A stretch of 27,686 nucleotides of DNA from Utricularia gibba. Lineage: Eukaryota > Streptophyta > Magnoliopsida > Lamiales > Lentibulariaceae. Below are positions 1 to 27,686 of this stretch, piece after piece. The notes beneath the pieces were generated by a model, which saw only the letters and a list, made by a program, of their open reading frames with translations, was not told the origin of the DNA and ran no database searches. How positions within the stretch are numbered: position 1 is the first letter of the stretch; each line of letters opens with the position of its first letter. The stretch covers positions 1 through 27,686 of the forward strand of contig NEEC01000462.1 of NCBI GenBank assembly GCA_002189035.1, in the 5' to 3' direction. The position numbers were made by a program, and so were the translations under genes.

Positions 1-629
1 AATCCTAACTTCAATAACTGCATCACGATTTTCGTCGAGTAGGACCAGATTGGCAAAGGAGACAGACCGAACCTTGGGTCAGAACGAAGTTCACAACGAC
101 ATCACCCGCCCAAAAACGACAAGCTTTTCCTTGAGAAAACCATTGAGGCAGCCTATTAAAACCAACCGTTAATAAATGCATCAAGTTTTTTGCCGAGCTA
201 CAAATGACTATGGGCCCGAGCTCGACTCGACCTCCTACTCGATACCGTTGCCCCACGAGAGCACCTTATCAAATATAAAGCATGCGGTTGAGAAAACCAT
301 TTTGGGTGCTCATGAATCCTAACTTCAATAACTGCATCACGATTTTCGTCGAGTAGGACCCGATGTGGCAAAGGAGTCAGACCGAACCTTGGTCAGAACG
401 AAGTTCCAAAAACATCACCCGCCCAGAAACGACAAGCTTTTCCTTGAGAAACCATGTAGGCAGCCTATTAAAACCAACGTTAATAAATGCATCACTTTTT
501 TTGCAGGCTAAAAATGACTCTGGGAGCGAGCCCGACTCGACCTTTTGCTCGATACCGTGCCCCACTAGAGCGCCTCCTCAAATATAAAGCATGCGATTGA
601 GAAAACATTTTGGGTGCTCATGAAATCCT

Positions 630-786
630 AACTTCAATAACTGCATCACGATTTTCGTCGAGTAGGACCAGATTTGGCAAAGGAGACAGACCGAACCTTG
701 GGTCAGAACGAAGTTCACAACGACATCACCCGCCCAAAACGACAAGCTTTTCCTTGAGAAAACCATTGAGGCAGCCTATTAAAACC
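630..786. repeat. Half-monomer a of the satellite (worked example, type A copy)
   Basis: This is the first half of a representative monomer, from aacttcaataa to the base before aacgttaataa. It contains the near-invariant stretch gattttcgtcgagtagga, the type-defining sites (agatttgg, gagacag, gttcacaac), the HindIII-type aagctt, and the shared core ttgagaaaaccatt at 754-767. It aligns to the following half. After aac, the blocks aataa, tgcatca, tttt and cgag fall in the same order and spacing (26 of 35 bases, no gaps). The next aligned stretch, around the shared core, matches 20 of 28. The same two-half layout is present in the other monomers I read. Confidence 0.85.
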
Positions 787-941
787 AACGTTAATAAATG
801 CATCAAGTTTTTTGCCGAGCTACAAATGACTATGGGCCCGAGCTCGACTCGACCTCCTACTCGATACCGTTGCCCCACGAGCACCTTATCAAATATAAAG
901 CATGCGGTTGAGAAAACCATTTTGGGTGCTCATGAAATCCT
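787..941. repeat. Half-monomer b of the satellite (worked example, type A copy)
   Basis: This is the second half of the same monomer, starting at aacgttaataa. It carries atgcat, the variable T-run, gggccc/gagctc, the ctcga-rich stretch, gcatgc, the second copy of ttgagaaaaccatt at 908-921, and tcatga. The two core copies are 154 bp apart here and about 155-156 bp apart generally, half of the full repeat. Half b differs from half a in having a slippage-prone T-run of 5-9 bases, where half a keeps a constant run of four. The halves have diverged too far to recombine freely, which explains why amplification proceeds in 310-bp steps. Confidence 0.85.
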
Positions 942-979
942 AACTTCAATAACTGCATCACGATTTTCGTCGAGTAGGA
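891..979. other. Conserved core spanning the monomer boundary (worked example)
   Basis: The stretch from aaatataaag through gcatgcgg, ttgagaaaaccattttggg, tgctcatga and taacttcaataactg to gtagga is nearly unchanged in the copies read. The exceptions are the D-type changes (aactaca, gcgattg), an a/-/c/t difference after catga, and rare small indels such as 4361 and 22971. The rest of the monomer, especially around gttc-aac, the aa-tgtagg site, the T-run and the gag-cc site, varies constantly. Such a conserved-versus-variable division is known for centromeric satellites, where conserved stretches can be protein-binding or nucleosome-positioning elements. No binding site of a known protein is identified here. 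Confidence 0.6.
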
Positions 980-1253
980 CCCGATGTGGCAAAGGAGTCA
1001 GACCGAACCTATGGTCAGAACGAAGTTCCAAAAGACATCACCCCCCAGAAACGACAAGCTTTTCCTTGAGAAACCATGTAGGCAGCCTATTAAAACCCAA
1101 CGTTAATAAATGCATCACTTTTTTTGACAGGCTAAAAAATGACTCTGGGAGCGAGCCCGACTCGACCTTTTGCCGATACCGTGCCCCACTAGAGCGCCTC
1201 CTCAACTACAAAGCATGCGATTGACAAAAGCATTTTGGGTGCTCATGAAATCC

Positions 1254-4200
1254 TAACTTCAATAACTGCATCACGATTTTCGTCGAGTAGGACCAGATTT
1301 GGCAAAGGAGACAGACCGAACCTTGGGTCAGAACGAAGTTCACAACGACATCACCCGCCCAAAAACGACAAGCTTTTCCTTGAGAAAACCATTGAGGCAG
1401 CCTATTAAAACCAACCGTTAATAAATGCATCAAGTTTTTTGCCGAGCTACAAATGACTATGGGCCCGAGCTCGACTCGACCTCCTACTCGATACCGTTGC
1501 CCACGAGAGCACCTTATCAAATATAAAGCATGCGGTTGAGAAAACCATTTTGGGTGCTCATGAAATCCTAACTTCAATAACTGCATCACGATTTTCGTCG
1601 AGTAGGACCCGATGTGGCAAAGGAGTCAGACCGAACCTTGGTCAGAACGAAGTTCCAAAAGACATCACCCGCCCAGAAACGACAAGCTTTTCCTTGAGAA
1701 ACCATGTAGGCAGCCTATTAAAACCAACGTTAATAAATGCATCAAGTTTTTGCCGAGCTACAAATGACTATGGGCCCGAGCTCGACTCGACCTCCTGCTC
1801 GATACCGTTGCCCCACGAGAGCGCCTCCTCAAATATAAAGCATGCGGTTGAGAAAACCATTTTGGGTGCTCATGACATCCTAACTTCAATAACTGCATCA
1901 CGATTTTCGTCGAGTAGGACCCGATGTGGCAAAGGAGTCAGACCGAACCTTGGTCAGAACGAAGTTCCAACGACATCACCCGCCCAGAAACGACAAGCTT
2001 TTCCTTGAGAAACTATGTAGGCAGCCTATAAAACCAACGTTAATAAATGCATCAATTTTTTTTGCCGGGCTACAAATGACTCTGGGCCCGAGCTCGACTC
2101 GACCTCCTGCTCGATACCGTTGCCCCACGAGAGCGCCTTATCAAATATAAAGCATGCGGTTGAGAAAACCATTTTGGGTGCTCATGAAATCCTAACTTCA
2201 ATAACTGCATCACGATTTTCGTCGAGTAGGACCAGATGTGGCAAAGGAGACAGACCGAACCTTGGGTCAGAACGAAGTTCACAACGACATCACCCGCCAA
2301 AAACGACAAGCTTTTCCTTGAGAAAACATGTAGGCAGCTATTAAAACCCAACGTTAATAAATGCATCAAGTTTTTTGCCGAGCTACAAATGACTATGGGC
2401 CGAGCTCGACTCGACCTCCTGCTCGATACCGTTGCCCCACGAGAGCGCCTTATCAAATATAAAGCATGCGGTTGAGAAAACCATTTTGGGTGCTCATGAA
2501 TCCTAACTTCAATAACTGCATCACGATTTTCGTCGAGTAGGACCCGATGTGGCAAAGGAGTCAGACCGAACCTTGGTCAGAACGAAGTTCCCAACGACAT
2601 CACCCGCCAGAAACGACAAGCTTTTCCTTGAGAAACTATGTAGGCAGCCTAATTAAAACCCAACGTTAATAAATGCATCAATTTTTTTGCCGGGCTACAA
2701 ATGACTCCCCGAGCTCGACTCGACCTCCTGCTCGATACCGTTGCCCCACGAGAGCGCCTTATCAAATATAAAGCATGCGGTTGAGAAAACCATTTTGGGT
2801 GCTCATGAATCCTAACTTCAATAACTGCATCACGATTTTCGTCGAGTAGGACCAGATTGGCAAAGGAGACAGACCGAACCTTGGTCAGAACGAAGTTCAC
2901 AACGACATCACCCGCCCAAAAACGACAAGCTTTTCTTGAGAAACCATTGAGGCAGCCTATTAAAACCAACGTTAATAAATGCATCAAGTTTTTTGCCGAG
3001 CTACAAATGACTATGGGCCCGAGCTCGACTCGACCTCCTACTCGATACCGTTGCCCCACGAGAGCACCTTATCAAATATAAAGCATGCGGTTGAGAAAAC
3101 CATTTTGGGTGCTCATGAAATCCTAACTTCAATAACTGCATCACGATTTTCGTCGAGTAGGACCCGATGTGGCAAAGGAGTCAGACCGAACCTTGGTCAG
3201 AACGAAGTTCCAAAAGACATCACCCGCCCAAAACGACAAGCTTTTCCTTGAGAAACATGTAGGCAGCCTATAAAACCAACGTTAATAAATGCATCAATTT
3301 TTTTTTGCCGGCTACAAATGACTCTGGGCCCGAGCTCGACTCGACCTCCTGCTCGATAGTTGCCCACGAGAGTGCCTTATCAAATATAAAGCATGCGGTT
3401 GAGAAAACCATTTTGGGTGCTCATGAAATCCTAACTTCAATAACTGCATCACGATTTTCGTCGAGTAGGACCGATTTGGCAAAGGAGACAGACCGAACCT
3501 TGGTCAGAACGAAGTTTCACAACGACATCACCCGCCCAAAAACGACAAGCTTTTCCTTGAGAAAACAATGTAGGCAGCTATTAAAACCCAACGTTAATAA
3601 TGCATCAAGTTTTTTGCCGAGCTACAAATGACTATGGGCCCGAGCTCGACTCGACCTCCTGCTCGATACCGTTGCCCCACGAGAGCGCCTCCTCAAATAT
3701 AAAGCATGCGGTTGAGAAAACCATTTTGGGTGCTCATGAAATCCTAACTTCAATAACTGCATCACGATTTTCGTCGAGTAGGACCGATGTGGCAAAGGAG
3801 TCAGACCGAACCTTGGGTCAGAACGAAGTTCCAACGACATCACCCGCCAAAAACGACAAGCTTTTCCTTGAGAAAACATGTAGGCAGCCTATTAAAACCA
3901 ACGTTAATAAATGCATCAATTTTTTTTGCCGAGCTACAAATGACTCTGGGCCGAGCTCGACTCGACCTCCTACTCGATACCGTTGCCCCACGAGAGCGCC
4001 TTATCAAATATAAAGCATGCGGTTGAGAAAACCATTTTGGGTGCTCATGAATCCTAACTTCAATAACTGCATCACGATTTTCGTCGAGTAGGACCCGATG
4101 TGGCAAAGGAGTCAGACCGAACCTTGGTCAGAACGAAGTTCCAAAAGACATCACCCGCCCAGAAACGACAAGCTTTTCCTTGAGAAAACTATGTAGGCAG

Positions 4201-4360
4201 CCTAATAAAACCAACGTTAATAAATGCATCAATTTTTTTGCCGAGCTACAAATGACTCTCCCGAGCTCGACTCGACCTCCTGCTCGATACCGTTGCCCCA
4301 CGAGAGCGCCTTATCAAATATAAAGCATGCGGTTGAGAAAACCATTTTGGGTGCTCATGA
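1254..4360. repeat. Mixed-order monomers
   Basis: Ten monomers start at 1254 (A), 1569 (D-like left half, B-like right half), 1881 (C), 2193 (B), 2504 (C), 2813 (A), 3124 (C with D-like left half), 3432 (B), 3745 (C with gccgag instead of gccggg), and 4055 (C with D-like gttccaaaagac). No single higher-order period fits. Several copies have small losses near gactctggg, such as gactcccc at 2704 and gactctcccg at 4255. The stretch looks like a region scrambled by unequal exchange between dyads, triplets and quartets. Confidence 0.75.
1569..1880. repeat. Mosaic monomer: D-like left, B-like right
   Basis: The left part has cccgatgtgg, gagtcag, gttccaaaagac, cagaaac and ccatgtagg, which match type D. 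From the T-run onward it has catcaag, ctatgggccc, cctgctcg, gagcgcctcctc and gcggttg, which match type B. The switch falls close to the half-monomer boundary near 1726. This is best explained by conversion or crossover between two neighbouring types. Its length is 312 bp. Confidence 0.75.
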
Positions 4361-5603
4361 AAACTTCAATAACTGCATCACGATTTTCGTCGAGTAGGAC
4401 CGATTGGCAAAGGAGTCAGACCGAACCTTGGGTCAGAACGAAGTTCACAACGACATCACCCGCCCAAAAACGACAAGCTTTTCCTTGAGAAAACCATTAG
4501 GCAGCCTATTAAAACCAACGTTAATAAATGCATCAAGTTTTTTTGCCGAGCTACAAATGACTATGGGCCCGAGCTCGACTCGACCTCCTACTCGATACCG
4601 TTGCCCCACGAGAGCACCTTATCAAATATAAAGCATGCGGTTGAGAAAACCATTTTGGGTGCTCATGAAATCCTAACTTCAATAACTGCATCACGATTTT
4701 CGTCGAGTAGGACCGATTTGGCAAAGGAGACAGACCGAACCTTGGTCAGAACGAAGTTCACAACGACATCACCCGCCCAAAAACGACAAGCTTTTCCTTG
4801 AGAAAACAATGTAGGCCTATTAAAACCAACGTTAATAATGCATCAAGTTTTTGCCGAGCTACAAATGACTATGGGCCCGAGCTCGACTCGACCTCCTGCT
4901 CGATACCGTTGCCCCACGAGAGCGCCTTATCAAATATAAAGCATGCGGTTGAGAAAACCATTTTGGGTGCTCATGAATCCTAACTTCAATAACTGCATCA
5001 CGATTTTCGTCGAGTAGGACCCGATGTGGCAAAGGAGTCAGACCGAACCTTGGGTCAGAACGAAGTTCACAACGACATCACCCGCCAAAACGACAAGCTT
5101 TTCCTTGAGAAAACATGTAGGCAGCCTATTAAAACCAACGTTAATAAATGCATCAATTTTTTTTGCCGAGCTACAAATGACTCTGGGCCCGAGCTCGACT
5201 CGACCTCCTGCTCGACCGTTGCCCCACGAGAGCGCCTTATCAAATATAAAGCATGCGGTTGAGAAAACCATTTTGGGTGCTCATGAATCCTAACTTCAAT
5301 AACTGCATCACGATTTTCGTCGAGTAGGACCCGATGTGGCAAAGGAGTCAGACCGAACCTATGGTCAGAACGAAGTTCAAAAGACATCACCCGCCCAGAA
5401 ACGACAAGCTTTTCCTTGAGAAAACCATGTAGGCAGCCTATTAAAACCCAACGTTAATAAATGCATCAATTTTTTTGCAGGCTACAAATGACTCTGGGAG
5501 CGAGCCCGACTCGACCTTTTGCCCGATACCGTGCCCCACTAGAGCGCCTCCTCAACTACAAAGCATGCGATTGAGAAAAGCATTTTGGGTGCTCATGAAA
5601 TCC
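4361..5603. repeat. Higher-order quartet A-B-C-D (first)
   Basis: Monomers start at 4361 (A), 4674 (B), 4981 (C-like, with B-like left half gttcacaac) and 5291 (D with ctatggtcag, gagcgagcccg, cttttgc, cactagag, aactaca, gcgattg). The total is 1243 bp. The order matches the quartets at 6541, 8721 and 9959. The first monomer begins abnormally: four bases (tcct) before aacttc are missing, giving catgaaaacttc around 4356-4367. Confidence 0.7.
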
Positions 5604-6540
5604 TAACTTCAATAACTGCATCACGATTTTCGTCGAGTAGGACCAGATTTGGCAAAGGAGACAGACCGAACCTTGGGTCAGAACGAAGTTCACAACGACA
5701 TCACCCGCCCAAAAACGACAAGCTTTTCCTTGAGAAACCATTGAGGCAGCCTATTAAAACCAACGTTAATAAATGCATCAAGTTTTTTGCCGAGCTACAA
5801 ATGACTATGGGCCCGAGCTCGACTCGACCTCCTACTCGATACCGTTGCCCCACGAGAGCACCTTATCAAATATAAAGCATGCGGTTGAGAAAACCATTTT
5901 GGGTGCTCATGAAATCCTAACTTCAATAACTGCATCACGATTTTCGTCGAGTAGGACCCGATGTGGCAAAGGAGTCAGACCGAACCTTGGGTCAGAACGA
6001 AGTTCACAACGACATCACCCGCCCAAAAACGACAAGCTTTTCCTTGAGAAAACCATTAGGCAGCCTATTAAACCAAACGTTAATAAATGCATCAAGTTTT
6101 TTGCCGAGCTACAAATGACTATGGGCCCGAGCTCGACTCGACCTCCTACTCGATACCGTTGCCCCACGAGAGCCCTTATCAAATATAAAGCATGCGGTTG
6201 AGAAAACCATTTTGGGTGCTCATGAATCCTAACTTCAATAACTGCATCACGATTTTCGTCGAGTAGGACCCGATGTGGCAAAGGAGTCAGACCGAACCTT
6301 GGTCAGAACGAAGTTCCAAAAGACATCACCCGCCCAGAAAACGACAAGCTTTTCCTTGAGAAACTATGTAGGCAGCCTATAAAACCAACGTTAATAAATG
6401 CATCAATTTTTTTGCCGGGCTACAAATGACTCTGGGCCGAGCTCGACTCGACCTCCTGCTCGATACCGTTGCCCCACGAGAGTGCCTTATCAAATATAAA
6501 GCATGCGGTTGAGAAAACCATTTTGGGTGCTCATGAATCC
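5604..6540. repeat. Triplet A-A'-C without D
   Basis: Monomers start at 5604 (A), 5918 (A-like right half with cctactcg but cccgatgtgg/gagtcag at the left) and 6230 (C with gttccaaaagac, ctatgtagg, gccggg, gagtgcc). No D monomer is present before the next quartet begins at 6541, so this is an incomplete or recombined quartet. Confidence 0.7.
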
Positions 6541-7786
6541 TAACTTCAATAACTGCATCACGATTTTCGTCGAGTAGGACCAGATTGGCAAAGGAGACAG
6601 ACCGAACCTTGGGTCAGAACGAAGTTCACAACGACATCACCCGCCAAAACGACAAGCTTTTCCTTGAGAAAACCATTGAGGCAGCCTATTAAAACCAACG
6701 TTAATAAATGCATCAAGTTTTTTGCCGAGCTACAAATGACTATGGGCCGAGCTCGACTCGACCTCCTACTCGATACCGTTGCCCCACGAGAGCACCTTAT
6801 CAAATATAAAGCATGCGGTTGAGAAAAACCATTTTGGGTGCTCATGAAATCCTAACTTCAATAACTGCATCACGATTTTCGTCGAGTAGGACCAGATGTG
6901 GCAAAGGAGACAGACCGAACCTTGGGTCAGAACGAAGTTCACAACGACATCACCCGCCCAAAAACGACAAGCTTTTCCTTGAGAAACAATGTAGGGCTAT
7001 TAAAACCCAACGTTAATAAATGCATCAAGTTTTTTGCCGAGCTACAAATGACTATGGGCCCGAGCTCGACTCGACCTCCTGCTCGATACCGTTGCCCCGA
7101 GAGCGCCTCCTCAAATATAAAGCATGCGGTTGAGAAAACCATTTTGGGTGCTCATGAATCCTAACTTCAATAACTGCATCACGATTTTCGTCGAGTAGGA
7201 CCCGATGTGGCAAAGGAGTCAGACAGAACCTTGGGTCAGAACGAAGTTCCCAACGACATCACCCGCCAGAAAACGACAAGCTTTTCCTTGAGAAACTATG
7301 TAGGCAGCCTAATAAAGCCGAACGTTAATAAATGCATCAATTTTTTTTGCCGGGCTACAAATGACTCTGGGCCCGAGCTCGACTCGACCTCCTGCTCGAT
7401 ACCGTTGCCCCACGAGAGTGCCTTATCAAATATAAAGCATGCGGTTGAGAAAACCATTTTGGGTGCTCATGATATCCTAACTTCAATAACTGCATCACGA
7501 TTTTCGTCGAGTAGGACCCGATGTGGCAAAGGAGTCAGACCGAACCTATGGTCAGAACGAAGTTCCAAAAGACATCACCCGCCCAGAAACGACAAGCTTT
7601 TCCTTGAGAAACCATGTAGGCAGCCTATTAAAACCAACGTTAATAAATGCATCAATTTTTTTGACAGGCTAAAAATGACTCTGGGAGCGAGCGACTCGAC
7701 CTTTTGCCCGATACCGTTGCCCCACTAGAGCGCCTCCTCAACTACAAAGCATGCGATTGAAAAACATTTTGGGTGCTCATGAATCC
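6541..7786. repeat. Higher-order quartet A-B-C-D (second)
   Basis: Monomers start at 6541 (A), 6853 (B), 7162 (C with cagacagaacc, cctaataaagccg, gagtgcc) and 7478 (D, opening with gatatcc and carrying ctatggtcag, cttttgcccg, cactagag, aactaca and gcgattg). The total is 1246 bp. All four types are clearly separated by linked variants, making this the clearest reference copy of the higher-order repeat. Confidence 0.85.
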
Positions 7787-8720
7787 TAACTTCAATAACT
7801 GCATCACGATTTTCGTCGAGTAGGACCAGATTTGGCAAAGGAGACAGACCGAACCTTGGGTCAGAACGAAGTTCACAACGACATCACCCGCCCAAAAACG
7901 ACAAGCTTTTCCTTGAGAAAACCATTGAGGCAGCCTATTAAAACCAACGTTAATAAATGCATCAAGTTTTTTGCCGAGCTACAAATGACTATGGGCCCGA
8001 GCTCGACTCGACCTCCTACTCGATACCGTTGCCCACGAGAGCACCTTATCAAATATAAAGCATGCGGTTGAGAAAACCATTTTGGGTGCTCATGAAATCC
8101 TAACTTCAATAACTGCATCACGATTTTCGTCGAGTAGGACCCGATGTGGCAAAGGAGTCAGACCGAACCTTGGGTCAGAACGAAGTTCCAAAAACATCAC
8201 CCGCCAAAAACGACAAGCTTTTCCTTGAGAAAACCATTAGGCAGCCTATTAAAACCAACGTTAATAAATGCATCAAGTTTTTTGCCGGCTACAAATGACT
8301 CTGGGCCCGAGCTCGACTCGACCCTGCTCGATACCGTTGCCCCACGAGAGCCCTTATCAAATATAAAGCATGCGGTTGAGAAAACCATTTTGGGTGCTCA
8401 TGAAATCCTAACTTCAATAACTGCATCACGATTTTCGTCGAGTAGGACCCGATGTGGCAAAGGAGTCAGACCGAACCTATGGTCAGAACGAAGTTCCAAA
8501 AGACATCACCCCCCAGAAACGACAAGCTTTTCCTTGAGAAACCATGTAGGCAGCCTATTAAAACCCAACGTTAATAAATGCATCACTTTTTTTGACAGGC
8601 TAAAATGACTCTGGGAGCGAGCCCGACTCGACCTTTTGCCCGATACCGTGCCCCACTAGAGCGCCTCCTCAACTACAAAGCATGCGATTGACAAAAGCAT
8701 TTTGGGTGCTCATGAAATCC
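7787..8720. repeat. Degenerate quartet lacking C (A-A'-D)
   Basis: Monomers start at 7787 (A), 8101 (mosaic: gttccaaaaac, ccattagg, catcaag T-run, then gccggc, ctctggg and a shortened ccctgctcg) and 8409 (D). The D copy closely resembles that at 941, including gcgattgac and the T-run after catcac. The middle monomer may be a fused B/C remnant formed when one monomer was lost by unequal exchange. Confidence 0.7.
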
Positions 8721-9958
8721 TAACTTCAATAACTGCATCACGATTTTCGTCGAGTAGGACCAGATTTGGCAAAGGAGACAGACCGAACCTTGGGTCAGAA
8801 CGAAGTTCACAAACATCACCCGCCCAAAAACGACAAGCTTTTCCTTGAGAAAACCATTGAGGCAGCCTATTAAAACCAAACGTTAATAAATGCATCAAGT
8901 TTTTTGCCGAGCTACAAATGACTATGGCCCGAGCTCGACTCGACCTCCTACTCGATACCGTTGCCCACGAGAGCACCTTATCAAATATAAAGCATGCGGT
9001 TGAGAAAACCATTTTGGGTGCTCATGAAATCCTAACTTCAATAACTGCATCACGATTTTCGTCGAGTAGGACCCGATTTGGCAAAGGAGTCAGACCGAAC
9101 CTTGGGTCAGAACGAAGTTCACAACGACATCACCCGCCCAAAAAACGACAAGCTTTTCCTTGAGAAAACAATGTAGGCTATTAAAACCAACGTTAATAAA
9201 TGCATCAAGTTTTTTGCCGAGCTACAAATGACTATGGGCCCGAGCTCGACTCGACCTCCTCTCGATACCGTTGCCCCACGAGAGCGCCTCCTCAAATATA
9301 AAGCATGCGGTTGAGAAAACCATTTTGGGTGCTCATGAATCCTAACTTCAATAACTGCATCACGATTTTCGTCGAGTAGGACCCGATGTGGCAAAGGAGT
9401 CAGACCGAACCTTGGGTCAGAACGAAGTTCCCAACGACATCACCCGCCAGAAACGACAAGCTTTTCCTTGAGAAACTATGTAGGCAGCCTAAAAACCAAC
9501 GTTAATAAATGCATCAATTTTTTGCGGGCTACAAATGACTCTGGGCCCGAGCTCGACTCGACCTCCTACTGATACCGTTGCCCCACGAGAGTGCCTTATC
9601 AAATATAAAGCATGCGGTTGAGAAAACCATTTTGGGTGCTCATGAATCCTAACTTCAATAACTGCATCACGATTTTCGTCGAGTAGGACCCGATGTGGCA
9701 AAGGAGTCAGACCGAACCTATGGTCAGAACGAAGTTCCAAAAGACATCACCCGCCCAGAAACGACAAGCTTTTCCTTGAGAAACCATGTAGGCAGCCTAT
9801 TAAAACCAACGTTAATAAATGCATCAATTTTTTTGCGGCTAAAAATGACTCTGGGAGCGAGCCGACTCGACCTTTTGCCCGATACCGTGCCCCACTAGAG
9901 CGCCTCCTCAACTATAAAGCATGCGATTGAGAAAACATTTTGGGTGCTCATGAAATCC
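8721..9958. repeat. Higher-order quartet A-B-C-D (third)
   Basis: Monomers start at 8721 (A), 9033 (B), 9343 (C with gttcccaac, ctatgtagg, gagtgcc) and 9650 (D with ctatggtcag, gagcgagccg, cttttgcccg, cactagag and gcgattg). The total is 1238 bp. It directly abuts the next quartet, giving the clearest two-copy tandem of the 1.24-kb higher-order unit. Confidence 0.85.
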
Positions 9959-11208
9959 TAACTTCAATAACTGCATCACGATTTTCGTCGAGTAGGACCA
10001 GATTTGGCAAAGGAGACAGACCGAACCTTGGGTCAGAACGAAGTTCACAACGACATCACCCGCCCAAAAACGACAAGCTTTTCCTTGAGAAAACCATTTA
10101 GGCAGCCTATTAAAACCAACCGTTAATAAATGCATCAAGTTTTTTGCCGAGCTACAAATGACTATGGGCCCGAGCTCGACTCGACCTCCTACTCGATACC
10201 GTTGCCCCACGAGAGCACCTTATCAAATATAAAGCATGCGGTTGAGAAAACCATTTTGGGTGCTCATGAATCCTAACTTCAATAACTGCATCACGATTTT
10301 CGTCGAGTAGGACCCGATGTGGCAAAGGAGTCAGACCGAACCTTGGGTCAGAACGAAGTTCACAACGACATCACCCGCCCAAAAACGACAAGCTTTTCCT
10401 TGAGAAAACATGTAGGCGCCTATTAAAACCCAACGTTAATAAATGCATCAAGTTTTTTTGCCGAGCTAAAAATGACTATGGGCCCGAGCTCGACTCGACC
10501 TCCTGCTCGATACCGTTGCCCACGAGAGCACCTTATCAAATATAAAGCATGCGGTTGAGAAAACCATTTTGGGTGCTCATGAATCTAACTTCAATAACTG
10601 CATCACGATTTTCGTCGAGTAGGACCCGATGTGGCAAAGGAGTCAGACCGAACCTTGGGTCAGAACGAAGTTCCCAACGACATCACCCGCCCAGAAACGA
10701 CAAGCTTTTCCTTGAGAAACTATGTAGGCAGCCTAATAAAGCCAACGTTAAATAAATGCATCAATTTTTTTGCCGGGCTACAAATGACTCTGGGCCCGAG
10801 CTCGACTCGACCTCCTGCTCGATACCGTTGCCCCACGAGAGCGCCTTATCAAATATAAAGCATGCGGTTGAGAAAACCATTTTGGGTGCTCATGAATCCT
10901 AACTTCAATAACTGCATCACGATTTTCGTCGAGTAGGACCCGATGTGGCAAAGGAGTCAGACCGAACCTTGGTCAGAACGAAGTTCAAAAGACATCACCC
11001 GCCCAGAAACGACAAGCTTTTCCTTGAGAAACCATGTAGGCAGCCTATTAAAACCAACGTTAATAAATGCATCAATTTTTTTTGCGGCTACAAATGACTC
11101 TGGGAGCGAGCTCGACTCGACCTCCTGCTCGATACCGTGCCCACGAGAGCGCCTCCTCAAATATAAAGCATGCGGTTGAGAAAAACATTTTGGGTGCTCA
11201 TGAAATCC
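9959..11208. repeat. Higher-order quartet A-B-C-D (fourth, eroded D)
   Basis: Monomers start at 9959 (A), 10274 (B, with an A-like gagcacc end), 10586 (C) and 10900 (D-derived). The total is 1250 bp. The last copy keeps gttcaaaagac, ctctgggagcgag and ccgtgccc, but its later part has cctgctcg, cacgagag, aaatata and gcggttg. It is a D monomer partly overwritten by another type. Confidence 0.8.
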
Positions 11209-13071
11209 TAACTTCAATAACTGCATCACGATTTTCGTCGAGTAGGACCAGATTGGCAAAGGAGACAGACCGAACCTTGGGTCAGAACGAAGTTCACAAC
11301 GACATCACCCGCCCAAAAAACGACAAGCTTTTCCTTGAGAAAACCATTTAGGCAGCCTATTAAAACCAACGTTAATAAATGCATCAAGTTTTTTGCCGAG
11401 CTACAAATGACTATGGGCCCGAGCTCGACTCGACCTCCTACTCGATACCGTTGCCCCACGAGAGCACCTTATCAAATATAAAGCATGCGGTTGAGAAAAC
11501 CATTTTGGGTGCTCATGAAATCCTAACTTCAATAACTGCATCACGATTTTCGTCGAGTAGGACCCGATGTGGCAAAGGAGTCAGACCGAACTTGGTCAGA
11601 ACGAAGTTCACAACGAAATCACCCGCCCAAAAACGACAAGCTTTTCCTTGAGAAAACAATGTAGGCAGCTATTAAAACCCAACGTTAATAAATGCATCAA
11701 GTTTTTTTGCCGAGCTACAAATGACTATGGGCCCGAGCTCGACTCGACCTCCTGCTCGATACCGTTGCCCCACGAGAGCGCCTCCTCAAATATAAAGCAT
11801 GCGGTTGAGAAAACCATTTTGGGTGCTCATGAATCCTAACTTCAATAACTGCATCACGATTTTCGTCGAGTAGGACCCGATGTGGCAAGGAGTCAGACCG
11901 AACCTTGGTCAGAACGAAGTTCCAAACGACATCACCCGCCAGAAACGACAAGCTTTTCTTGAGAAACTATGTAGGCAGCCTAATAACCGAACGTTAATAA
12001 ATGCATCAATTTTTTGCCGGGCTACAAATGACTCTGGGCCGAGCTCGACTCGACCTCCTGCTCGATACCGTTGCCCCACGAGAGTGCCCTTATCAAATAT
12101 AAAGCATGCGGTTGAGAAAACCATTTTGGGTGCTCATGAAATCCTAACTTCAATAACTGCATCACGATTTTCGTCGAGTAGGACCCGATGTGGCAAAGGA
12201 GTCAGACCGAACCTTGGGTCAGAACGAAGTTCAAACGACATCACCCGCCCAAAACGACAAGCTTTTCCTTGAGAAAACAATGTAGGCAGCTATTAAAACC
12301 CAACGTTAATAAATGCATCAAGTTTTTTGCCGAGCTACAAATGACTATGGGCCCGAGCTCGACTCGACCTCCTGCTCGATACCGTTGCCCCACGAGAGCG
12401 CCTCCTCAAATATAAAGCATGCGGTTGAGAAAACCATTTTGGGTGCTCATGAATCCTAACTTCAATAACTGCATCACGATTTTCGTCGAGTAGGACCGAT
12501 GTGGCAAAGGAGTCAGACAGAACCTTGGTCCGAACGAAGTTCCCAACGACATCACCCGCCCAGAAACGACAAGCTTTTCCTTGAGAAACTATGTAGGCAG
12601 CCTAATAAAGCCAACGTTAATAAATGCATCAATTTTTTTTGCCGGGCTACAAATGACTCTGGGCCCGAGCTCGACTCGACCTCCTACTCGATACCGTTGC
12701 CCCACGAGAGTGCCTTATCAAATATAAAGCATGCGGTTGAGAAACCATTTTGGGTGCTCATGATCCTAACTTCAATAACTGCATCACGATTTTCGTCGAG
12801 TAGGACCCGATGTGGCAAAGGAGTCAGACCGAACCTATGGTCAGAACGAAGTTCCAAAAGACATCACCCGCCAGAAACGACAAGCTTTTCCTTGAGAAAC
12901 ATAGGCAGCCTAAAAACCAACGTTAATAAATGCATCAATTTTTTTGCCGGGCTACAAATGACTCTGGCCGAGCTCGACTCGACCTCCTGCTCGATACCGT
13001 TGCCCCACGAGAGCGCCTTATCAAATATAAAGCATGCGGTTGAGAAAACCATTTTGGGTGCTCATGAATCC
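11209..13071. repeat. Expanded higher-order unit A-B-C-B-C-D
   Basis: Monomers start at 11209 (A), 11524 (B), 11837 (C), 12145 (B), 12457 (C with cagacagaacc and ggtccgaacg) and 12767 (D-like left half with ctatggtcag and gttccaaaagac; C-like right half). The total is 1863 bp, one quartet plus an additional B-C pair. An unequal exchange shifted by two monomers gives exactly this arrangement. Confidence 0.75.
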
Positions 13072-16000
13072 TAACTTCAATAACTGCATCACGATTTTCG
13101 TCGAGTAGGACCAGATTTGGCAAAGGAGACAGACCGAACCTTGGGTCAGAACGAAGTTCACAACGACATCACCCGCCCAAAAACGACAAGCTTTTCCTTG
13201 AGAAAACCATTGAGGCAGCCTATTAAAACCAACCGTTAATAAATGCATCAAGTTTTTTGCCGAGCTACAAATGACTATGGGCCCGAGCTCGACTCGACCT
13301 CCTACTCGATACCGTTGCCCCACGAGAGCCCTTATCAAATATAAAGCATGCGGTTGAGAAAACCATTTTGGGTGCTCATGAAATCCTAACTTCAATAACT
13401 GCATCACGATTTTCGTCGAGTAGGACCCGATGTGGCAAAGGAGTCAGACCGAACCTTGGTCAGAACGAAGTTCACAACGACATCACCCGCCCAAAAACGA
13501 CAAGCTTTTCCTTGAGAAAACAATGTAGGGCCTATTAAAACCCAACGTTAATAATGCATCAAGTTTTTTGCCGAGCTACAAATGACTATGGGCCCGAGCT
13601 CGACTCGACCTCCTGCTCGATACCGTTGCCCCACGAGAGCGCCTCCTCAAATATAAAGCATGCGGTTGAGAAAACCATTTTGGGTGCTCATGACATCCTA
13701 ACTTCAATAACTGCATCACGATTTTCGTCGAGTAGGACCCGATGTGGCAAAGGAGTCAGACAGAACCTTGGTCAGAACGAAGTTCCCAACGACATCACCC
13801 GCCAGAAACGACAGCTTTTCCTTGAGAAACTATGTAGGCAGCCTAATAAAACCGAACGTTAATAAATGCATCAATTTTTTTTGCCGGGCTACAAATGACT
13901 CTGGGCCGAGCTCGACTCGACCTCCTGCTCGATACCGTTGCCCCACGAGAGTGCCTTATCAAATATAAAGCATGCGGTTGAGAAAACCATTTTGGGTGCT
14001 CATGAATCCTAACTTCAATAACTGCATCACGATTTTCGTCGAGTAGGACCCGATGTGGCAAAGGAGTCAGACCGAACCTTGGGTCAGAACGAAAGTTCAC
14101 AACGACATCACCCGCCCAAAACGACAAGCTTTTCCTTGAGAAAACAATGTAGGCAGCTATTAAAACCCAACGTTAATAAAATGCATCAAGTTTTTTGCCG
14201 AGCTACAAATGACTATGGGCTCGACTCGACCTCCTGCTCGATACCGTTGCCCCACGAGAGCGCCTCCTCAAATATAAAGCATGCGGTTGAGAAAACCATT
14301 TTGGTGCTCATGACATCCTAACTTCAATAACTGCATCACGATTTTCGTCGAGTAGGACCCGATGTGGCAAAGGAGTCAGACAGAACCTTGGGTCAGAACG
14401 AAGTTCCCAACGACATCACCCGCCAGAAACGACAAGCTTTTCCTTGAGAAACTATGTAGGCAGCCTAATAAGCCGAACGTTAATAAATGCATCAATTTTT
14501 TGCGGGCTACAAATGACTCTGGGCCCGAGCTCGACTCGACCTCCTGCTCGATACCGTTGCCCCACGAGAGCGCCTCCTCAAATATAAAGCATGCGGTTGA
14601 GAAAACCATTTTGGGTGCTCATGAAATCCTAACTTCAATAACTGCATCACGATTTTCGTCGAGTAGGACCAGATTTGGCAAAGGAGACAGACCGAACCTT
14701 GGGTCAGAACGAAGTTCACAACGAAATCACCCGCCCAAAAACGACAAGCTTTTCCTTGAGAAAACAATGTAGGCAGCTATTAAAACCAACGTTAATAATG
14801 CATCAAGTTTTTTGCCGAGCTACAAATGACTATGGGCCCGAGCTCGACTCGACCTCCTGCTCGATACCGTTGCCCCACGAGAGCACCTTATCAAATATAA
14901 AGCATGCGGTTGAGAAAACCATTTTGGGTGCTCATGAATCCTAACTTCAATAACTGCATCACGATTTTCGTCGAGTAGGACCCGATGTGGCAAAGGAGTC
15001 AGACCGAACCTTGGGTCAGAACGAAGTTCCAACGACATCACCCGCAGAAACGACAAGCTTTTCCTTGAGAAAATGTAGGCAGCCTAATAAACCAACGTTA
15101 ATAAATGCATCAATTTTTTTGCCGGGCTACAAATGACTCTGGGCCGAGCTCGACTCGACCTCCTGCTCGATACCGTTGCCCCACGAGAGCGCCTTATCAA
15201 ATATAAAGCATGCGGTTGAGAAAACCATTTTGGGTGCTCATGAATCCTAACTTCAATAACTGCATCACGATTTTCGTCGAGTAGGACCCGATGTGGCAAA
15301 GGAGTCAGACCGAACCTTGGTCAGAACGAAGTTCCAACGACATCACCCGCCCAGAAACGACAAGCTTTTCCTTGAGAAACTATGTAGGCAGCCTATAAAC
15401 CGAACGTTAATAAATGCATCAATTTTTTTGCCGGGCTACAAATGACTCTGGGCCGAGCTCGACTCGACCTCCTGCTCGATACCGTTGCCCCACGAGAGCC
15501 TCCTCAAATATAAAGCATGCGGTTGAGAAAACCATTTTGGGTGCTCATGAAATCCTAACTTCAATAACTGCATCACGATTTTCGTCGAGTAGGACCCGAT
15601 TTGGCAAAGGAGTCAGACCGAACCTTGGGTCAGAACGAAGTTCACAACGACATCACCGCCCAAAAACGACAAGCTTTTCCTTGAGAAAACCATGTAGGCA
15701 GCCTATTAAAACCAACCGTTAATAAATGCATCAAGTTTTTTGCCGAGCTACAAATGACTATGGCCCGAGCTCGACTCGACCTCCTACTCGATACCGTTGC
15801 CCCACGAGAGCACCTTATCAAATATAAAGCATGCGGTTGAGAAAACCATTTTGGGTGCTCATGACATCCTAACTTCAATAACTGCATCACGATTTTCGTC
15901 GAGTAGGACCCGATGTGGCAAAGGAGTCAGACCGAACCTTGGGTCAGAACGAAGTTCACAACGACATCACCCGCCCAAAACGACAAGCTTTTCCTTGAGA

Positions 16001-16183
16001 AAACAATGTAGGCGTTCTATTAAAACCCAACGTTAATTAATGCATCAAGTTTTTTGCCGAGCTACAAATGACTATGGGCCCGAGCTCGACTCGACCTCCT
16101 GCTCGATACCGTTGCCCCACGAGAGCGCCTCCTCAAATATAAAGCATGCGGTTGAGAAAACCATTTGGGTGCTCATGACATCC
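13072..16183. repeat. Monomers without D, mostly A/B-C order
   Basis: Monomers start at 13072 (A), 13387 (B), 13699 (C), 14010 (B), 14319 (C), 14630 (B with A-like agatttgg start and gagcacc end), 14942 (C), 15248 (C), 15556 (A with cccgatttgg and ccatgtagg) and 15870 (B). Type D is absent. The copies at 13699, 14319 and 15870 open with gacatcc. The copy at 15870 has a private insertion-like ggcgttctatt near 16012 and a substitution creating ttaattaa at 16033-16040. Confidence 0.75.
13811..13817. other. Lost HindIII-type site in one monomer
   Basis: Here acgacagctttt replaces the usual acgacaagctttt, a single-A loss that removes aagctt. Nearly every other monomer keeps this site at about offset 117. 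A HindIII digest should therefore leave a roughly 620-bp fragment across this point if the loss is real and not a sequencing error. Confidence 0.8.
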
Positions 16184-16456
16184 TAACTTCAATAACTGCA
16201 TCACGATTTTCGTCGAGTAGGACCCGATGTGGCAAAGGAGTCAGACCGAACCTTGGTCAGAACGAAGTTCCAAAAGACATCACCCGCCCAGAAACGACAA
16301 GCTTTTCCTTGAGAAACTATGTAGGCAGCCTATTAAAACCCAACGTTAATAAATGCATCGACTCGACCTCCTACTCGATACCGTTGCCCCACGAGAGCGC
16401 CTTATCAAATATAAAGCATGCGGTTGAGAAAACCATTTTGGGTGCTCATGAAATCC
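16184..16456. repeat. Shortened monomer with internal 39-41 bp deletion
   Basis: This is the only strongly short copy (273 bp). The sequence runs aaatgcatc directly into gactcgacctcctactcg at 16359/16360. The T-run, the gcc-g-gctacaaatgact segment and gggcccgagctc are missing. The two breakpoints share only tc in the intact copies (gcatc and gagctc), which suggests a microhomology-mediated or slippage deletion. The left part is D/C-like (gttccaaaagac, ctatgtagg) and the right end is cctactcg with gagcgccttatc. Confidence 0.9.
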
Positions 16457-18611
16457 TAACTTCAATAACTGCATCACGATTTTCGTCGAGTAGGACCGAT
16501 GTGGCAAAGGAGTCAGACCGAACCTTGGTCAGAACGAAGTTCACAACGACATCACCCGCCCAAAAACGACAAGCTTTTCCTTGAGAAAACATGTAGGCAG
16601 CCTATTAAAACCCAACGTTAATAAATGCATCAAGTTTTTTGCCGAGCTACAAATGACTATGGGCCCGAGCTCGACTCGACCTCCTGCTCGATACCGTTGC
16701 CCCACGAGAGCGCCTCCTCAAATATAAAGCATGCGGTTGAGAAAACCATTTTGGGTGCTCATGAATCCTAACTTCAATAACTGCATCACGATTTTCGTCG
16801 AGTAGGACCCGATGTGGCAAAGGAGTCAGACGAACCTTGGTCGAACGAAGTTCCCAACGACATCACCCGCCAGAAACGACAAGCTTTTCCTTGAGAAACA
16901 TGTAGGCAGCCTATTAAACCAACGTTAATAAATGCATCAATTTTTTGCCGGGCTACAAATGACTCTGGGCCCGAGCTCGACTCGACCTCCTGCTCGATAC
17001 CGTTGCCCCACGAGAGCGCCTTATCAAATATAAAGCATGCGGTTGAGAAAACCATTTTGGGTGCTCATGAAATCCTAACTTCAATAACTGCATCACGATT
17101 TTCGTCGAGTAGGACCCGATGTGGCAAAGGAGTCAGACCGAACCTTGGGTCAGAACGAAGTTCACAACGACATCACCCGCCCAAAACGACAAGCTTTTCC
17201 TTGAGAAACATGTAGGCAGCCTATTAAAACCCAACGTTAATAAATGCATCAAGTTTTTTGCCGAGCTACAAATGACTATGGGCCGACTCGACCTCCTGCT
17301 CGATACCGTTGCCCCACGAGAGCCTCCTCAAATATAAAGCATGCGGTTGAGAAAACCATTTTGGGTGCTCATGAATCCTAACTTCAATAACTGCATCACG
17401 ATTTTCGTCGAGTAGGACCCGATGTGGCAAAGGAGTCAGACGAACCTTGGTCAGAACGAAGTTCCCAACGACATCACCCGCCAGAAACGACAAGCTTTTC
17501 CTTGAGAAACTATGTAGGCAGCCTAATAAAACCAACGTTAATAAATGCATCAATTTTTTTGCCGGCTACAAATGACTCTGGGCCCGAGCTCGACTCGACC
17601 TCCTGCTCGATACCGTTGCCCCACGAGAGCGCCTATCAAATATAAAGCATGCGGTTGAGAAAACCATTTTGGGTGCTCATGAAATCCTAACTTCAATAAC
17701 TGCATCACGATTTTCGTCGAGTAGGACCGATGTGGCAAAGGAGTCAGACCGAACCTTGGGTCAGAACGAAGTTCCAACGACATCACCCGCCCAAAAACGA
17801 CAAGCTTTTCCTTGAGAAAACATGTAGGCAGCCTATTAAAACCAACGTTAATAAATGCATCAAGTTTTTTGCCGAGCTACAAATGACTATGGGCCCGAGC
17901 TCGACTCGACCTCCTGCTCGATACCGTTGCCCCACGAGAGCGCCTTATCAAATATAAAGCATGCGGTTGAGAAAACCATTTTGGGTGCTCATGAATCCTA
18001 ACTTCAATAACTGCATCACGATTTTCGTCGAGTAGGACCCGATGTGGCAAAGGAGTCAGACGAACCTTGGTCAGAACGAAGTTCAACGACATCACCCGCC
18101 AAAACGACAAGCTTTTCCTTGAGAAACATGTAGGCAGCCTAATAAACCAACGTTAATAAATGCATCAATTTTTTTGCCGGCTACAAATGACTCTGGGCCC
18201 GAGCTCGACTCGACCTCCTGCTCGATACCGTTGCCCCACGAGAGTGCCTTATCAAATATAAAGCATGCGGTTGAGAAAACCATTTTGGGTGCTCATGAAT
18301 CCTAACTTCAATAACTGCATCACGATTTTCGTCGAGTAGGACCCGATGTGGCAAAGGAGTCAGACCGAACCTTGGTCAGAACGAAGTTCCAAACGACATC
18401 ACCCGCCAGAAACGACAAGCTTTTCCTTGAGAAACATGTAGGCAGCCTAATAAACCAACGTTAATAAATGCATCAATTTTTTGCCGGGCTACAAATGACT
18501 CTGGGCCCGAGCTCGACTCGACCTCCTGCTCGATACCGTTGCCCCACTAGAGCGCCTCCTCAAATATAAAGCATGCGGTTGAGAAAACCATTTTGGGTGC
18601 TCATGAAATCC
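16457..18611. repeat. B-C alternating dyads
   Basis: Monomers start at 16457 (B), 16769 (C), 17076 (B), 17379 (C), 17688 (B), 17999 (C) and 18303 (C). Three successive B-C dyads measure 619, 612 and 615 bp. From 16769 onward C copies often carry cagacgaacc, a one-base-shorter form of the cagacagaacc seen in C copies at 7162-14630. Several of these monomers are short (303-309 bp) because of small losses around gttc-aac and gggc-gag. Confidence 0.8.
18303..18611. repeat. C monomer with a D-type patch
   Basis: Most of this copy is C-like: ccagaaac, acatgtagg, cctaataaacc, gccggg and ctctgggccc. Near 18546 it has cactagag, otherwise found only in D monomers, followed by gagcgcctcctc and the usual aaatata and gcggttg. 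The short patch is a likely gene-conversion tract, or an independent g-to-t change. Confidence 0.6.
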
Positions 18612-19843
18612 TAACTTCAATAACTGCATCACGATTTTCGTCGAGTAGGACCAGATTTGGCAAAGGAGTCAGACCGAACCTTGGGTCAGAACGAAGTTCA
18701 CAACGACATCACCCGCCCAAAAACGACAAGCTTTTCCTTGAGAAAACCATGTAGGCAGCCTATTAAAACCAACCGTTAATAAATGCATCAAGTTTTTTGC
18801 CGAGCTACAAATGACTATGGGCCCGAGCTCGACTCGACCTCCTGCTCGATACCGTTGCCCCACGAGAGCCTTATCAAATATAAAGCATGCGGTTGAGAAA
18901 ACCATTTTGGGTGCTCATGAATCCTAACTTCAATAACTGCATCACGATTTTCGTCGAGTAGGACCCGATGTGGCAAAGGAGTCAGACCGAACCTTGGGTC
19001 AGAACGAAGTTCCAACGACATCCCGCCCAAAAACGACAAGCTTTTCCTTGAGAAAACATGTAGGCAGCCTATTAAAACCCAACGTTAATAAATGCATCTT
19101 TTTTTGCCGAGCTACAAATGACTATGGGCCCGAGCTCGACTCGACCTCCTGCTCGATACCGTTGCCCCACGAGAGCGCCTTCAAATATAAAGCATGCGGT
19201 TGAGAAAACCATTTTGGGTGCTCATGAATCCTAACTTCAATAACTGCATCACGATTTTCGTCGAGTAGGACCCGATGTGGCAAAGGAGTCAGACCGAACC
19301 TTGGTCAGAACGAAGTTCCAAAAGACATCACCGCCCAAAACGACAAGCTTTTCCTTGAGAAACCATGTAGGCAGCCTATTAAAACCCAACGTTAATAAAT
19401 GCATCAATTTTTTTGCCGGCTACAAATGACTCTGGGCGAGCTCGACTCGACCCTGCTCGATACCGTTGCCCCACGAGAGCGCCTCCTCAAATATAAAGCA
19501 TGCGGTTGAGAAAACCATTTTGGGTGCTCATGAAATCCTAACTTCAATAACTGCATCACGATTTTCGTCGAGTAGGACCCGATGTGGCAAAGGAGTCAGA
19601 CCGAACCTTGGTCAGAACGAAGTTCCAAAAGACATCACCCGCCAAAACGACAAGCTTTTCCTTGAGAAACATGTAGGCAGCCTATTAAACCAACGTTAAT
19701 AAATGCATCAAATTTTTTTGCGGGCTACAAATGACTCTGGGCCGAGCTCGACTCGACCTTTGCTCGATACCGTTGCCCCACGAGAGCGCCTCCTCAAATA
19801 TAAAGCATGCTTGAGAAAACCATTTTGGGTGCTCATGAAATCC
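18612..19843. repeat. Mixed quartet A-B-C/D-C/D
   Basis: Monomers start at 18612 (A-like left with agatttgg and aaccgtt, but cctgctcg), 18925 (B, with a loss giving catctttttttgcc near 19097 and catcccgcc near 19019), 19232 and 19539. The last two combine D-like gttccaaaagac with C-like later segments, and have shortened gggcgag and ccctgctcg (19232), or cctttgctcg and gcatgcttgag (19539). The arrangement resembles the A-B-C-D quartet with its last two members blended. Confidence 0.65.
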
Positions 19844-21701
19844 TAACTTCAATAACTGCATCACGATTTTCGTCGAGTAGGACCAGATTGGCAAAGGAGA
19901 CAGACCGAACCTTGGGTCAGAACGAAGTTCACAACGACATCACCCGCCAAAAACGACAAGCTTTTCCTTGAGAAAACCATGTAGGCAGCCTATTAAAACC
20001 AACCGTTAATAAATGCATCAAGTTTTTTGCCGAGCTACAAATGACTATGGGCCCGAGCTCGACTCGACCTCCTGCTCGATACCGTTGCCCCACGAGAGCA
20101 CCTTATCAAATATAAAGCATGCGGTTGAGAAAACCATTTTGGGTGCTCATGAATCCTAACTTCAATAACTGCATCACGATTTTCGTCGAGTAGGACCCGA
20201 TGTGGCAAAGGAGTCAGACCGAACCTTGGGTCAGAACGAAGTTCCAACGACATCACCCGCCCAAAAACGACAAGCTTTTCCTTGAGAAAACATGTAGGCA
20301 GCCTATTAAAACCCAACGTTAATAAATGCATCAAGTTTTTTGCCGAGCTACAAATGACTATGGGCCCGAGCTCGACTCGACCTCCTGCTCGATACCGTTG
20401 CCCCACGAGAGCGCCTCCTCAAATATAAAGCATGCGGTTGAGAAAACCATTTTGGGTGCTCATGAATCCTAACTTCAATAACTGCATCACGATTTTCGTC
20501 GAGTAGGACCGATGTGGCAAAGGAGTCAGACGAACCTTGGGTCAGAACGAAGTTCCCAACGACATCACCCGCCAGAAACGACAAGCTTTTCCTTGAGAAA
20601 CTATGTAGGCAGCCTAAAAGCCGAACGTTAATAAATGCATCAATTTTTTGCCGGCTACAAATGACTCTGGGCCGAGCTCGACTCGACCTCCTGCTCGATA
20701 CCGTTGCCCCACGAGAGCGCCTTATCAAATATAAAGCATGCGGTTGAGAAAACCATTTTGGGTGCTCATGAAATCCTAACTTCAATAACTGCATCACGAT
20801 TTTCGTCGAGTAGGACCGATGGCAAAGGACAGACCGAACCTTGGGTCAGAACGAAGTTCACAACGACATCACCGCCCAAAAACGACAAGCTTTTCCTTGA
20901 GAAAACCATGTAGGCAGCCTATTAAAACCAACGTTAATAAATGCATCAAGTTTTTTGCCGAGCTACAAATGACTATGGGCCCGAGCTCGACTCGACCTCC
21001 TGCTCGATACCGTTGCCCCACGAGAGCGCCTTATCAAATATAAAGCATGCGGTTGAGAAAACCATTTTGGGTGCTCATGAATCCTAACTTCAATAACTGC
21101 ATCACGATTTTCGTCGAGTAGGACCCGATGTGGCAAAGGAGTCAGACCGAACCTTGGGTCAGAACGAAGTTCCAACGACATCACCCGCCCAAAAACGACA
21201 AGCTTTTCCTTGAGAAAACATGTAGGCAGCCTATTAAAACCAACGTTAATAAATGCATCAAGTTTTTTGCCGAGCTACAAATGACTATGGGCCCGAGCTC
21301 GACTCGACCTCCTGCTCGATACCGTTGCCCCACGAGAGCGCCTATCAAATATAAAGCATGCGGTTGAGAAAACCATTTTGGGTGCTCATGACATCCTAAC
21401 TTCAATAACTGCATCACGATTTTCGTCGAGTAGGACCCGATGTGGCAAAGGAGTCAGACGAACCTTGGGTCAGAACGAAGTTCCCAACGACATCACCCGC
21501 CAAAACGACAAGCTTTTCCTTGAGAAACATGTAGGCAGCCTAATAAACCAACGTTAATAAATGCATCAATTTTTTGCCGGCTACAAATGACTATGGGCCG
21601 AGCTCGACTCGACCTCCTGCTCGATACCGTTGCCCCACGAGAGCGCCTTATCAAATATAAAGCATGCGGTTGAGAAAACCATTTTGGGTGCTCATGAATC
21701 C
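19844..21701. repeat. Two A-B-C triplets
   Basis: Monomers start at 19844 (A-like), 20157 (B), 20470 (C), 20777 (A-like), 21085 (B) and 21397 (C). Triplet lengths are 933 and 925 bp. A-like copies here have ccatgtagg and cctgctcg instead of ccattgagg and cctactcg, so A and B are converging. C copies carry cagacgaacc and gttcccaac. The copy at 20777 has a private loss giving gatggcaaaggacag at 20818-20832. Confidence 0.75.
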
Positions 21702-23559: not shown

Positions 23560-23866
23560 TAACTTCAATAACTGCATCACGATTTTCGTCGAGTAGGACC
23601 CGATGTGGCAAAGGAGTCAGACCGAACCTTGGTCAGAACGAAGTTCCAAAAGACATCACCCGCCAGAAACGACAAGCTTTTCCTTGAGAAACCATGTAGG
23701 CAGCCTATTAAAACCCAACGTTAATAAATGCATCAATTTTTTGCCGGCTAAAAATGACTCTGGGAGCGAGCTCGACTCGACCTTTGCTCGATACCGTGCC
23801 CCACGAGAGCGCCTCCTCAAATATAAAGCATGCGATTGAAAACCATTTTGGGTGCTCATGAAATCC
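23560..23866. repeat. Isolated D-like monomer in the homogenised region
   Basis: This copy has gttccaaaagac, ccatgtagg, gccggctaaaa, ctctgggagcgag, cctttgctcg, accgtgcccc and gcgattg, all D features last seen strongly before 11 kb. It has cacgagag and aaatata instead of cactagag and aactaca, like the eroded D at 10900. It is about 10.8 kb from the nearest clear D-derived monomer to the left (12767). It is either a relic of a former quartet or a later transfer from another part of the array. Confidence 0.8.
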
Positions 23867-27598: not shown

Positions 27599-27686
27599 TA
27601 ACTTCAATAACTGCATCACGATTTTCGTCGAGTAGGACCCGATGTGGCAAAGGAGTCAGACCGAACCTTGGGTCAGAACGAAGTTC
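27599..27686. repeat. Partial monomer at the window end
   Basis: The last 88 bases run from taacttcaataactg to gaacgaagttc. The type cannot be decided because the diagnostic gttc-aac site is cut off. It has cccgatgtgg, gagtcag and cttgggtc, and is preceded by gatatcc as in the D copy at 7478. Confidence 0.9.

What the first reader, a model, noticed from the sequence alone, without database searches (positions are those of the whole stretch)
630..941. The 310-bp unit is an ancient dimer of a ~156-bp repeat
Two halves of each monomer align head to tail. The block beginning aacttcaataa (half a) and the block beginning aacgttaataa (half b) match at 26 of 35 positions without gaps. The preceding 28 bases match at 20, and both contain the exact core ttgagaaaaccatt. 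The ctcga-rich and acgac/acgag regions also align more weakly. In the monomer at 1569 the two halves are exactly 156 bp each. A unit of ~156 bp is close to nucleosome spacing and to the size of known grass centromere satellites (about 155-156 bp for CentO and CentC), though size alone shows no kinship.
Basis: seen in the sequence. Interest (0 to 1): 0.72.

Follow-up and report, generated by a model that had tools for sequence, protein, structure and literature searches.

The report
Ancient doubled satellite repeat in bladderwort
The 311-base repeat that fills this stretch is an old fusion of two related 156-base units, and it belongs to an abundant satellite DNA family, probably near centromeres, in what is very likely a carnivorous bladderwort whose putative centromeres were described as lacking such repeats.

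Summary
Confirmed and extended. The window is one contig of ~89 head-to-tail copies of a ~311-bp satellite. Its halves (a, b) align in register: 104 of 148 ungapped positions, 63% of all columns, 0 of 1000 shuffles as good. Two diverged subfamilies from the same genome settle it: a- and b-profiles also match in the middle (z 5.9, 0 of 300), in register. A tree puts 5 a and 4 b sequences on opposite sides (100/100), so the doubling predates the subfamilies. Exact patterns found 6,418 b-a junctions genome-wide and no b-b or a-a; two short a/b chimeras exist. The genome is very likely Utricularia gibba. Contig C213 runs from a telomere to ~218 kb sampled as this satellite, beside LTR retrotransposons, so a (peri)centromeric place is likely but unproved; a paper says putative U. 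gibba centromeres lack satellites. Doubled satellites are known (e.g. the 343-bp repeat of New World monkeys): a new member, not a new kind.

The parts
1..27686 (+). Satellite array filling the whole contig (G000:C201); ~89 monomers of ~311 bp, one orientation
   Evidence: Tandem Repeats Finder periods 311-312 over the window; 89 monomers between 90 anchors; 27,561 of 27,686 bases covered by plus-strand hits of the consensus halves
630..786 (+). a half of the monomer named in the finding (157 bp)
   Evidence: Boundaries from the a and b start motifs
787..941 (+). b half of the same monomer (155 bp)
   Evidence: Boundaries from the b start and the next a start
754..767 (+). 14-base core ttgagaaaaccatt in the a half
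   Evidence: Read; exact in 12 of 89 a halves
908..921 (+). The same 14-base core in the b half
   Evidence: Read; exact in 77 of 89 b halves
1570..1881 (+). Monomer with halves of exactly 156 and 156 bp
1099..1254 (+). b-prime variant half, 84.8% to the b consensus; five others under 90% at 476-629, 5450-5604, 7636-7787, 8567-8721 and 9808-9959
   Evidence: 6 of 88 long b hits in the window lie under 90%
16185..16457 (+). Short 273-bp monomer; the stretch 16341-16357 in it is the only gap of 15 bases or more in consensus coverage
   Evidence: Monomer spacing and coverage

Best explanation
The repeat is a dimeric plant satellite. An ancestral ~156-bp tandem unit diverged into two variants, a and b; an a-b pair was then amplified, probably by unequal exchange, and replaced the single unit, so that homogenisation now acts on the ~311-bp pair. 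Shown here: the pair structure, its register, and that the a/b split is older than the split into at least three subfamilies. Inferred: the single-unit ancestor and the amplification step. The arrays most likely lie in centromeric or pericentromeric DNA of some chromosomes of Utricularia gibba, packaged with about one nucleosome per half (inferred from size and map position only). My separate odds: dimer 0.95, species 0.95, (peri)centromeric place 0.6.
For: Whole-half alignment above 1000 of 1000 shuffles in four scorings, best in register; autocorrelation peak at 155-156. In two diverged subfamilies a and b still alternate; all 20 a-b pairs of 5 a and 4 b sequences beat 500 of 500 shuffles over the whole half; profile comparison significant in the middle too. 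Tree splits a from b at 100/100. Monomers are on average 95.8% alike while halves are ~63-70% alike. 6,418 b-a junctions and no b-b or a-a by exact pattern; 571 of 573 neighbouring half starts 130-180 bp apart alternate in the fetched DNA. Place: C213 starts with a telomere and its last ~218 kb is satellite at all 28 stretches sampled, next to gypsy- and copia-type reading frames.
Against: With the window's own consensus the middle ~88 bp is marginal, and in the middle only 7 of 20 a-b pairs beat all 500 shuffles; the other 13 were reached by 1 to 185 of 500. Reverse-complement windows of b score up to 23.9 against 32.0 in register. No single ~156-bp array was found. For the centromeric place: no CENH3 or FISH data; C3 and C4 have telomeres at both ends, yet the listings show no exact copy on C1-C33; 32 of 37 readable ends of 19 large contigs show no satellite. 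No 10-bp AA/TT/TA period above shuffles (343 of 500 as high). Species: the paper's contig count is 581, here 516.
Confidence: 0.75

Rival explanations
1. Only a ~70-bp box around the a/b junctions is shared (a duplicated, converted or functionally constrained motif); the rest of the 311-bp unit is not a duplication.
For: On the window alone the middle is reached by 20 of 1000 shuffles and its first part by 312 of 1000; 13 of 20 middle comparisons are reached by at least 1 of 500 shuffles.
Against: Profiles over three subfamilies match in the middle and in each part of it (0 of 300 each) and only near register.
Confidence: 0.05
2. It is a dimeric satellite, but of subtelomeric, knob or B-chromosome heterochromatin, not of centromeres.
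For: Two telomere-to-telomere contigs seem to lack it; most satellite contigs are unplaced; 10 of 55 copies of one rare variant lie on C213, the rest on other contigs.
Against: On C213 the array lies ~3.49 Mb from the telomere, at the opposite end of the contig; none of the 14 telomeric ends probed shows satellite within 600 bases.
Confidence: 0.3
3. The array structure is an artefact of assembling noisy long reads.
For: Many contigs are short, and monomer lengths scatter by a few bases (303-316), which looks like residual indel error.
Against: The a-b alternation recurs in the arrays read, on contigs of very different sizes and in three subfamilies; misassembly would not make two diverged halves.
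Confidence: 0.02

Closest known systems
New World monkey 343-bp alpha satellite (PMC4053949, passages)
   Same: A doubled version of a nucleosome-sized unit became the main repeat, and its halves are only weakly alike.
   Different: [quoted passage not shown] here no single unit was found and relatives could not be searched.
Dimeric alpha satellite of human suprachromosomal families 1-2 (PMC8122249, passages)
   Same: Two alternating units that differ up to ~30%, homogenised as a pair.
   Different: Human dimers carry a CENP-B box and bind centromere proteins; no such box (motif recalled) is in the window and no protein data exist here.
CentO (rice, 155 bp) and CentC (maize, 156 bp) (PMC8122249, passages)
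   Same: Half length close to 155-156 bp; thousands of copies.
   Different: Those are single-unit repeats of grasses; the unit here is a dimer in a eudicot. Sequence kinship was not tested.
Arabidopsis pericentric 500-bp repeat (PMC8122249, passages)
   Same: A satellite derivative with a foreign insert, like the 2.33-kb composite unit seen here on C402.
   Different: Different species and sequence; the comparison is of the kind of event only.
Potato centromeres, five of which lack satellites (PMC6123737, passages)
   Same: Some chromosomes may carry satellite arrays while others lack them.
   Different: In potato centromere identity is established (recalled: by CENH3); here only map position is known.

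Membership tests
Doubled-unit (dimeric) satellite | The two halves are homologous along their whole length, in register | tested here: met
   Whole halves; middle with subfamilies; marginal on the window alone
Doubled-unit (dimeric) satellite | a and b copies cluster separately, and pairs are more alike than halves | tested here: met
   Tree 100/100; monomers 95.8% alike against ~63-70% between halves
Doubled-unit (dimeric) satellite | A single-unit form exists in the same or a related genome | tested here: inconclusive
   No b-b or a-a junction by exact pattern in the assembly, which would miss diverged ones; two a/b chimeras of 145 and 134 bp; no related genome held
Centromeric satellite | Long, abundant, homogenised tandem arrays | tested here: met
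   6,418 exact junctions; ~218 kb sampled at the end of C213. Whether it is the most abundant tandem repeat was not tested
Centromeric satellite | Present at the centromere of (nearly) every chromosome | tested here: inconclusive
   At one non-telomeric arm end on C213, and at ends of C402, C414 and C460; no exact copy listed on C1-C33, which include the telomere-to-telomere contigs C3 and C4
Centromeric satellite | Carries CENH3 nucleosomes | not testable with these tools
   Needs ChIP or immunostaining
CentO/CentC family of grasses | Unit of 155-156 bp | tested here: inconclusive
   Half length is 155-158 bp, but the repeated unit is ~311 bp
CentO/CentC family of grasses | Shared sequence motif (about 80 bp between rice and maize, PMC4053949) | not tested
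   No CentO or CentC sequence was fetched

The most novel reading that the evidence does not exclude
Utricularia gibba, whose putative centromeres were described as satellite-free, carries an old dimeric satellite family of several percent of its assembly that forms the centromeres of some chromosomes while others have satellite-free centromeres: a potato-like mixed state in one of the smallest plant genomes, with turnover among at least three subfamilies.
Probability: 0.3. Interest if true: 0.65.

Novelty: new member of a known kind. Interest (0 to 1): 0.42.

Why it matters
If the arrays are centromeric, the statement that U. gibba's putative centromeres lack satellites holds only for the chromosomes that assembled through, and a ~100-Mb plant becomes a handy system for comparing satellite-based and satellite-free centromeres. 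The dimer also shows a nucleosome-sized unit doubling early and from then on being homogenised as a pair.

Tried and rejected
CENP-B box (motif recalled): 0 in the window on either strand. Ten-base AA/TT/TA period of the consensus: 343 of 500 shuffles as high, so none. Higher-order unit inside the window: mean identity at lags 1-12 varies only from 0.952 to 0.966, so no clear one, although b and b-prime halves alternate over much of L006 on C213. Plastid contig length as a species test: the stretches asked for were masked in whole or part and the comparison gave no match, so nothing was concluded. Searches with diverged halves for relics on other contigs returned only the homogenised 2.33-kb family (40 of 1269 and 40 of 1029 candidates scored). 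Literature searches for a described U. gibba satellite: 3 papers; 11, 10 listed; 20; lists read, passages of some; none of the listings names one, but the 2017 genome paper is not held and may.

Full report
What is there. The window is a complete contig (G000:C201) made of one ~311-bp tandem repeat in one orientation: 89 full monomers between 90 anchors, 303-316 bp long except one of 273 bp, with 27,561 of 27,686 bases covered by hits of the two consensus halves. Mean pairwise identity of monomers, substitutions only, is 0.958 (lowest 0.869).

The observation. In the monomer 630-941 the halves are 157 and 155 bp. The 14-base core is exact in both halves of this monomer, but over the array it is exact in 77 of 89 b halves and 12 of 89 a halves. 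The raw window has an autocorrelation peak at 155-156.

Chance test on the window alone. Consensus a (158 bp) and b (156 bp) align globally with 104 of 148 ungapped positions identical over 166 columns; z is 7.8-8.2 in four scorings, and 0 of 1000 dinucleotide shuffles reach the score in each; the unrotated b is the best of all rotations. By block: the first 33 bases give 26 of 33 and the last 37 columns 23, each above 1000 of 1000 shuffles; the middle gives 55 of 78 ungapped, reached by 20 of 1000 shuffles (52 of 1000 with another scoring), its first part by 312 and its second by 23 of 1000.

Relatives. I probed both ends of 19 contigs of 0.88 Mb or more, chosen because histone or photosystem hits or the satellite had shown them; one of the 38 ends was wholly N. 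Five show satellite: C213 end, C402 end, C414 start, C460 start and C460 end; 14 show telomere repeats. At the C460 end lies a subfamily whose a halves are mostly 82-84% and b halves 74-83% like the window's consensus; at the C402 end a third one, with b 73-77% and a about 67-69% over the longer stretches. In both, a and b still alternate. Of 20 pairs (5 a, 4 b sequences), all 20 beat 500 of 500 shuffles over the whole half; in the middle 7 of 20 beat all 500, and the other 13 were reached by 1 to 185 of 500. One weighted a-profile against one weighted b-profile gives z 5.9 in the middle, 0 of 300 column shuffles, and 0 of 300 for each part of it. With fixed-length windows the in-register score is 32.0 (best 34.8, two columns away); far offsets reach at most 12.8, reversed b 14.0, reverse-complement b 23.9. 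A tree of the nine sequences splits a from b at 100/100. The duplication therefore spans the whole unit and is older than the subfamilies.

No single unit. Exact patterns found 6,418 b-a junctions in the assembly (3,030 + 3,388) and none of b-b or a-a type. As a control, in the window the b-a pattern gives 87 matches and the a-b pattern 48, so diverged junctions can be missed. In 97 fetched sequences (171,216 bases, six known duplicates removed) 571 of 573 neighbouring half starts 130-180 bp apart alternate; 39 further neighbour pairs have other spacings, 26 of these between like halves. The two exceptions, 145 and 134 bp, begin as a and end as b, as an exchange between halves would leave, though both lie in disordered or error-like sequence.

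Abundance. 6,418 window-type junctions correspond to about 2.0 Mb of the 100.09-Mb assembly. The 19-base b start with at most one mismatch occurs 15,008 times (7,151 + 7,857). In canonical loci the two counts are close (for example 87 and 83 in the window, 28 and 29 in L006), while C460- and C402-type loci have b starts but no such junction. So over half of the b starts seem to belong to other variants; if each marked a ~311-bp dimer the family would be about 4.7 Mb, an estimate not checked copy by copy.

Genome and place. The genome has a contig with an intact full-length photosystem II (PF00421) frame, hence a plastid contig, and contigs of 8,500,000, 6,822,880 and 3,424,836 bp. PMC5793159 (passages) gives the U. 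gibba PacBio assembly a contig N50 of 3.4 Mb, PMC8333044 (passages) a Unitig_8 of 6.8 Mb; 3,424,836 is the N50 that I recall for that assembly. Against: the paper's contig count is 581, here 516. I take it as Utricularia gibba. C213 (3,704,653 bp) starts with telomere repeats; from about 3,486,175 to its end all 28 stretches sampled (two overlap) are satellite, and the three sampled outside that range between 3,440,001 and 3,484,600 are not. The 9 kb sampled beside it hold LTR-retrotransposon reading frames, one with reverse transcriptase and RNase H, one copia-type with gag-pre-integrase and integrase, and the array edge abuts a further copia-like stretch (read by eye). This fits an arm ending in pericentromeric DNA. 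Against a satellite at every centromere, C3 and C4 have telomeres at both ends, and the listings, which run in contig order, show no exact copy on C1-C33; copies with mismatches there would not have been listed.

Literature. PMC8333044 (passages) suggests that low lncRNA density in the putative U. gibba centromeres could be related to absence of satellite repeats, citing Lan et al. 2017 (reference 15), which is not held. The listings name no U. gibba satellite. PMC4053949 (passages) gives the closest precedent for a doubled unit and reports dimeric or higher-order structure in 76 of 171 species. PMC6123737 (passages) reports that five potato centromeres lack satellites.

Mechanism. Shown: pair structure, register and order of events. 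Inferred: variants of a 156-bp unit, amplification of a pair by unequal exchange, homogenisation by pair, and (peri)centromeric packaging. No 10-bp dinucleotide period was found in the consensus, so the nucleosome link rests on size alone.

Noticed in passing
L083 (end of G000:C402), and contigs such as C150, C183, C196, C209-C211, C215, C217, C219, C252, C257, C258, C403, C404: A ~2.33-kb composite tandem unit: about five and a half diverged satellite halves plus ~1.5 kb of other DNA with 62-bp repeats and a ~900-bp foldback-like inverted repeat, apparently inserted in a b half. 70 of 80 scored copies of two of its halves are 100% identical across many contigs; a marker occurs 214 times.
   Followed up: partly
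G000:C460 (880,676 bp): Satellite at both ends, in opposite orientation and of different subfamilies, with no satellite hit at 8 places sampled between 100 and 860 kb, and broken photosystem II (PF00421) pieces with stops near 799 kb.
   Followed up: partly
L006 (G000:C213:3592001-3601000): b halves near 97% and b-prime halves near 85% identity alternate over much of the stretch, giving a ~624-bp higher-order unit that is rare in the window.
   Followed up: partly
L038 (G000:C213:3499001-3502000): A scrambled patch inside the array: fragments of a and b in broken order, with deletions.
   Followed up: no
L086 (start of G000:C414): A ~95-bp relic of the a/b junction, ~80% alike, followed by DNA without satellite hits.
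   Followed up: no
G000:C98, C99 and C92: The start of C98 reads as N; C92 and C99 are long arrays of the C460-type subfamily, with many markers spaced about 625 bp apart, suggesting a two-dimer unit.
   Followed up: no
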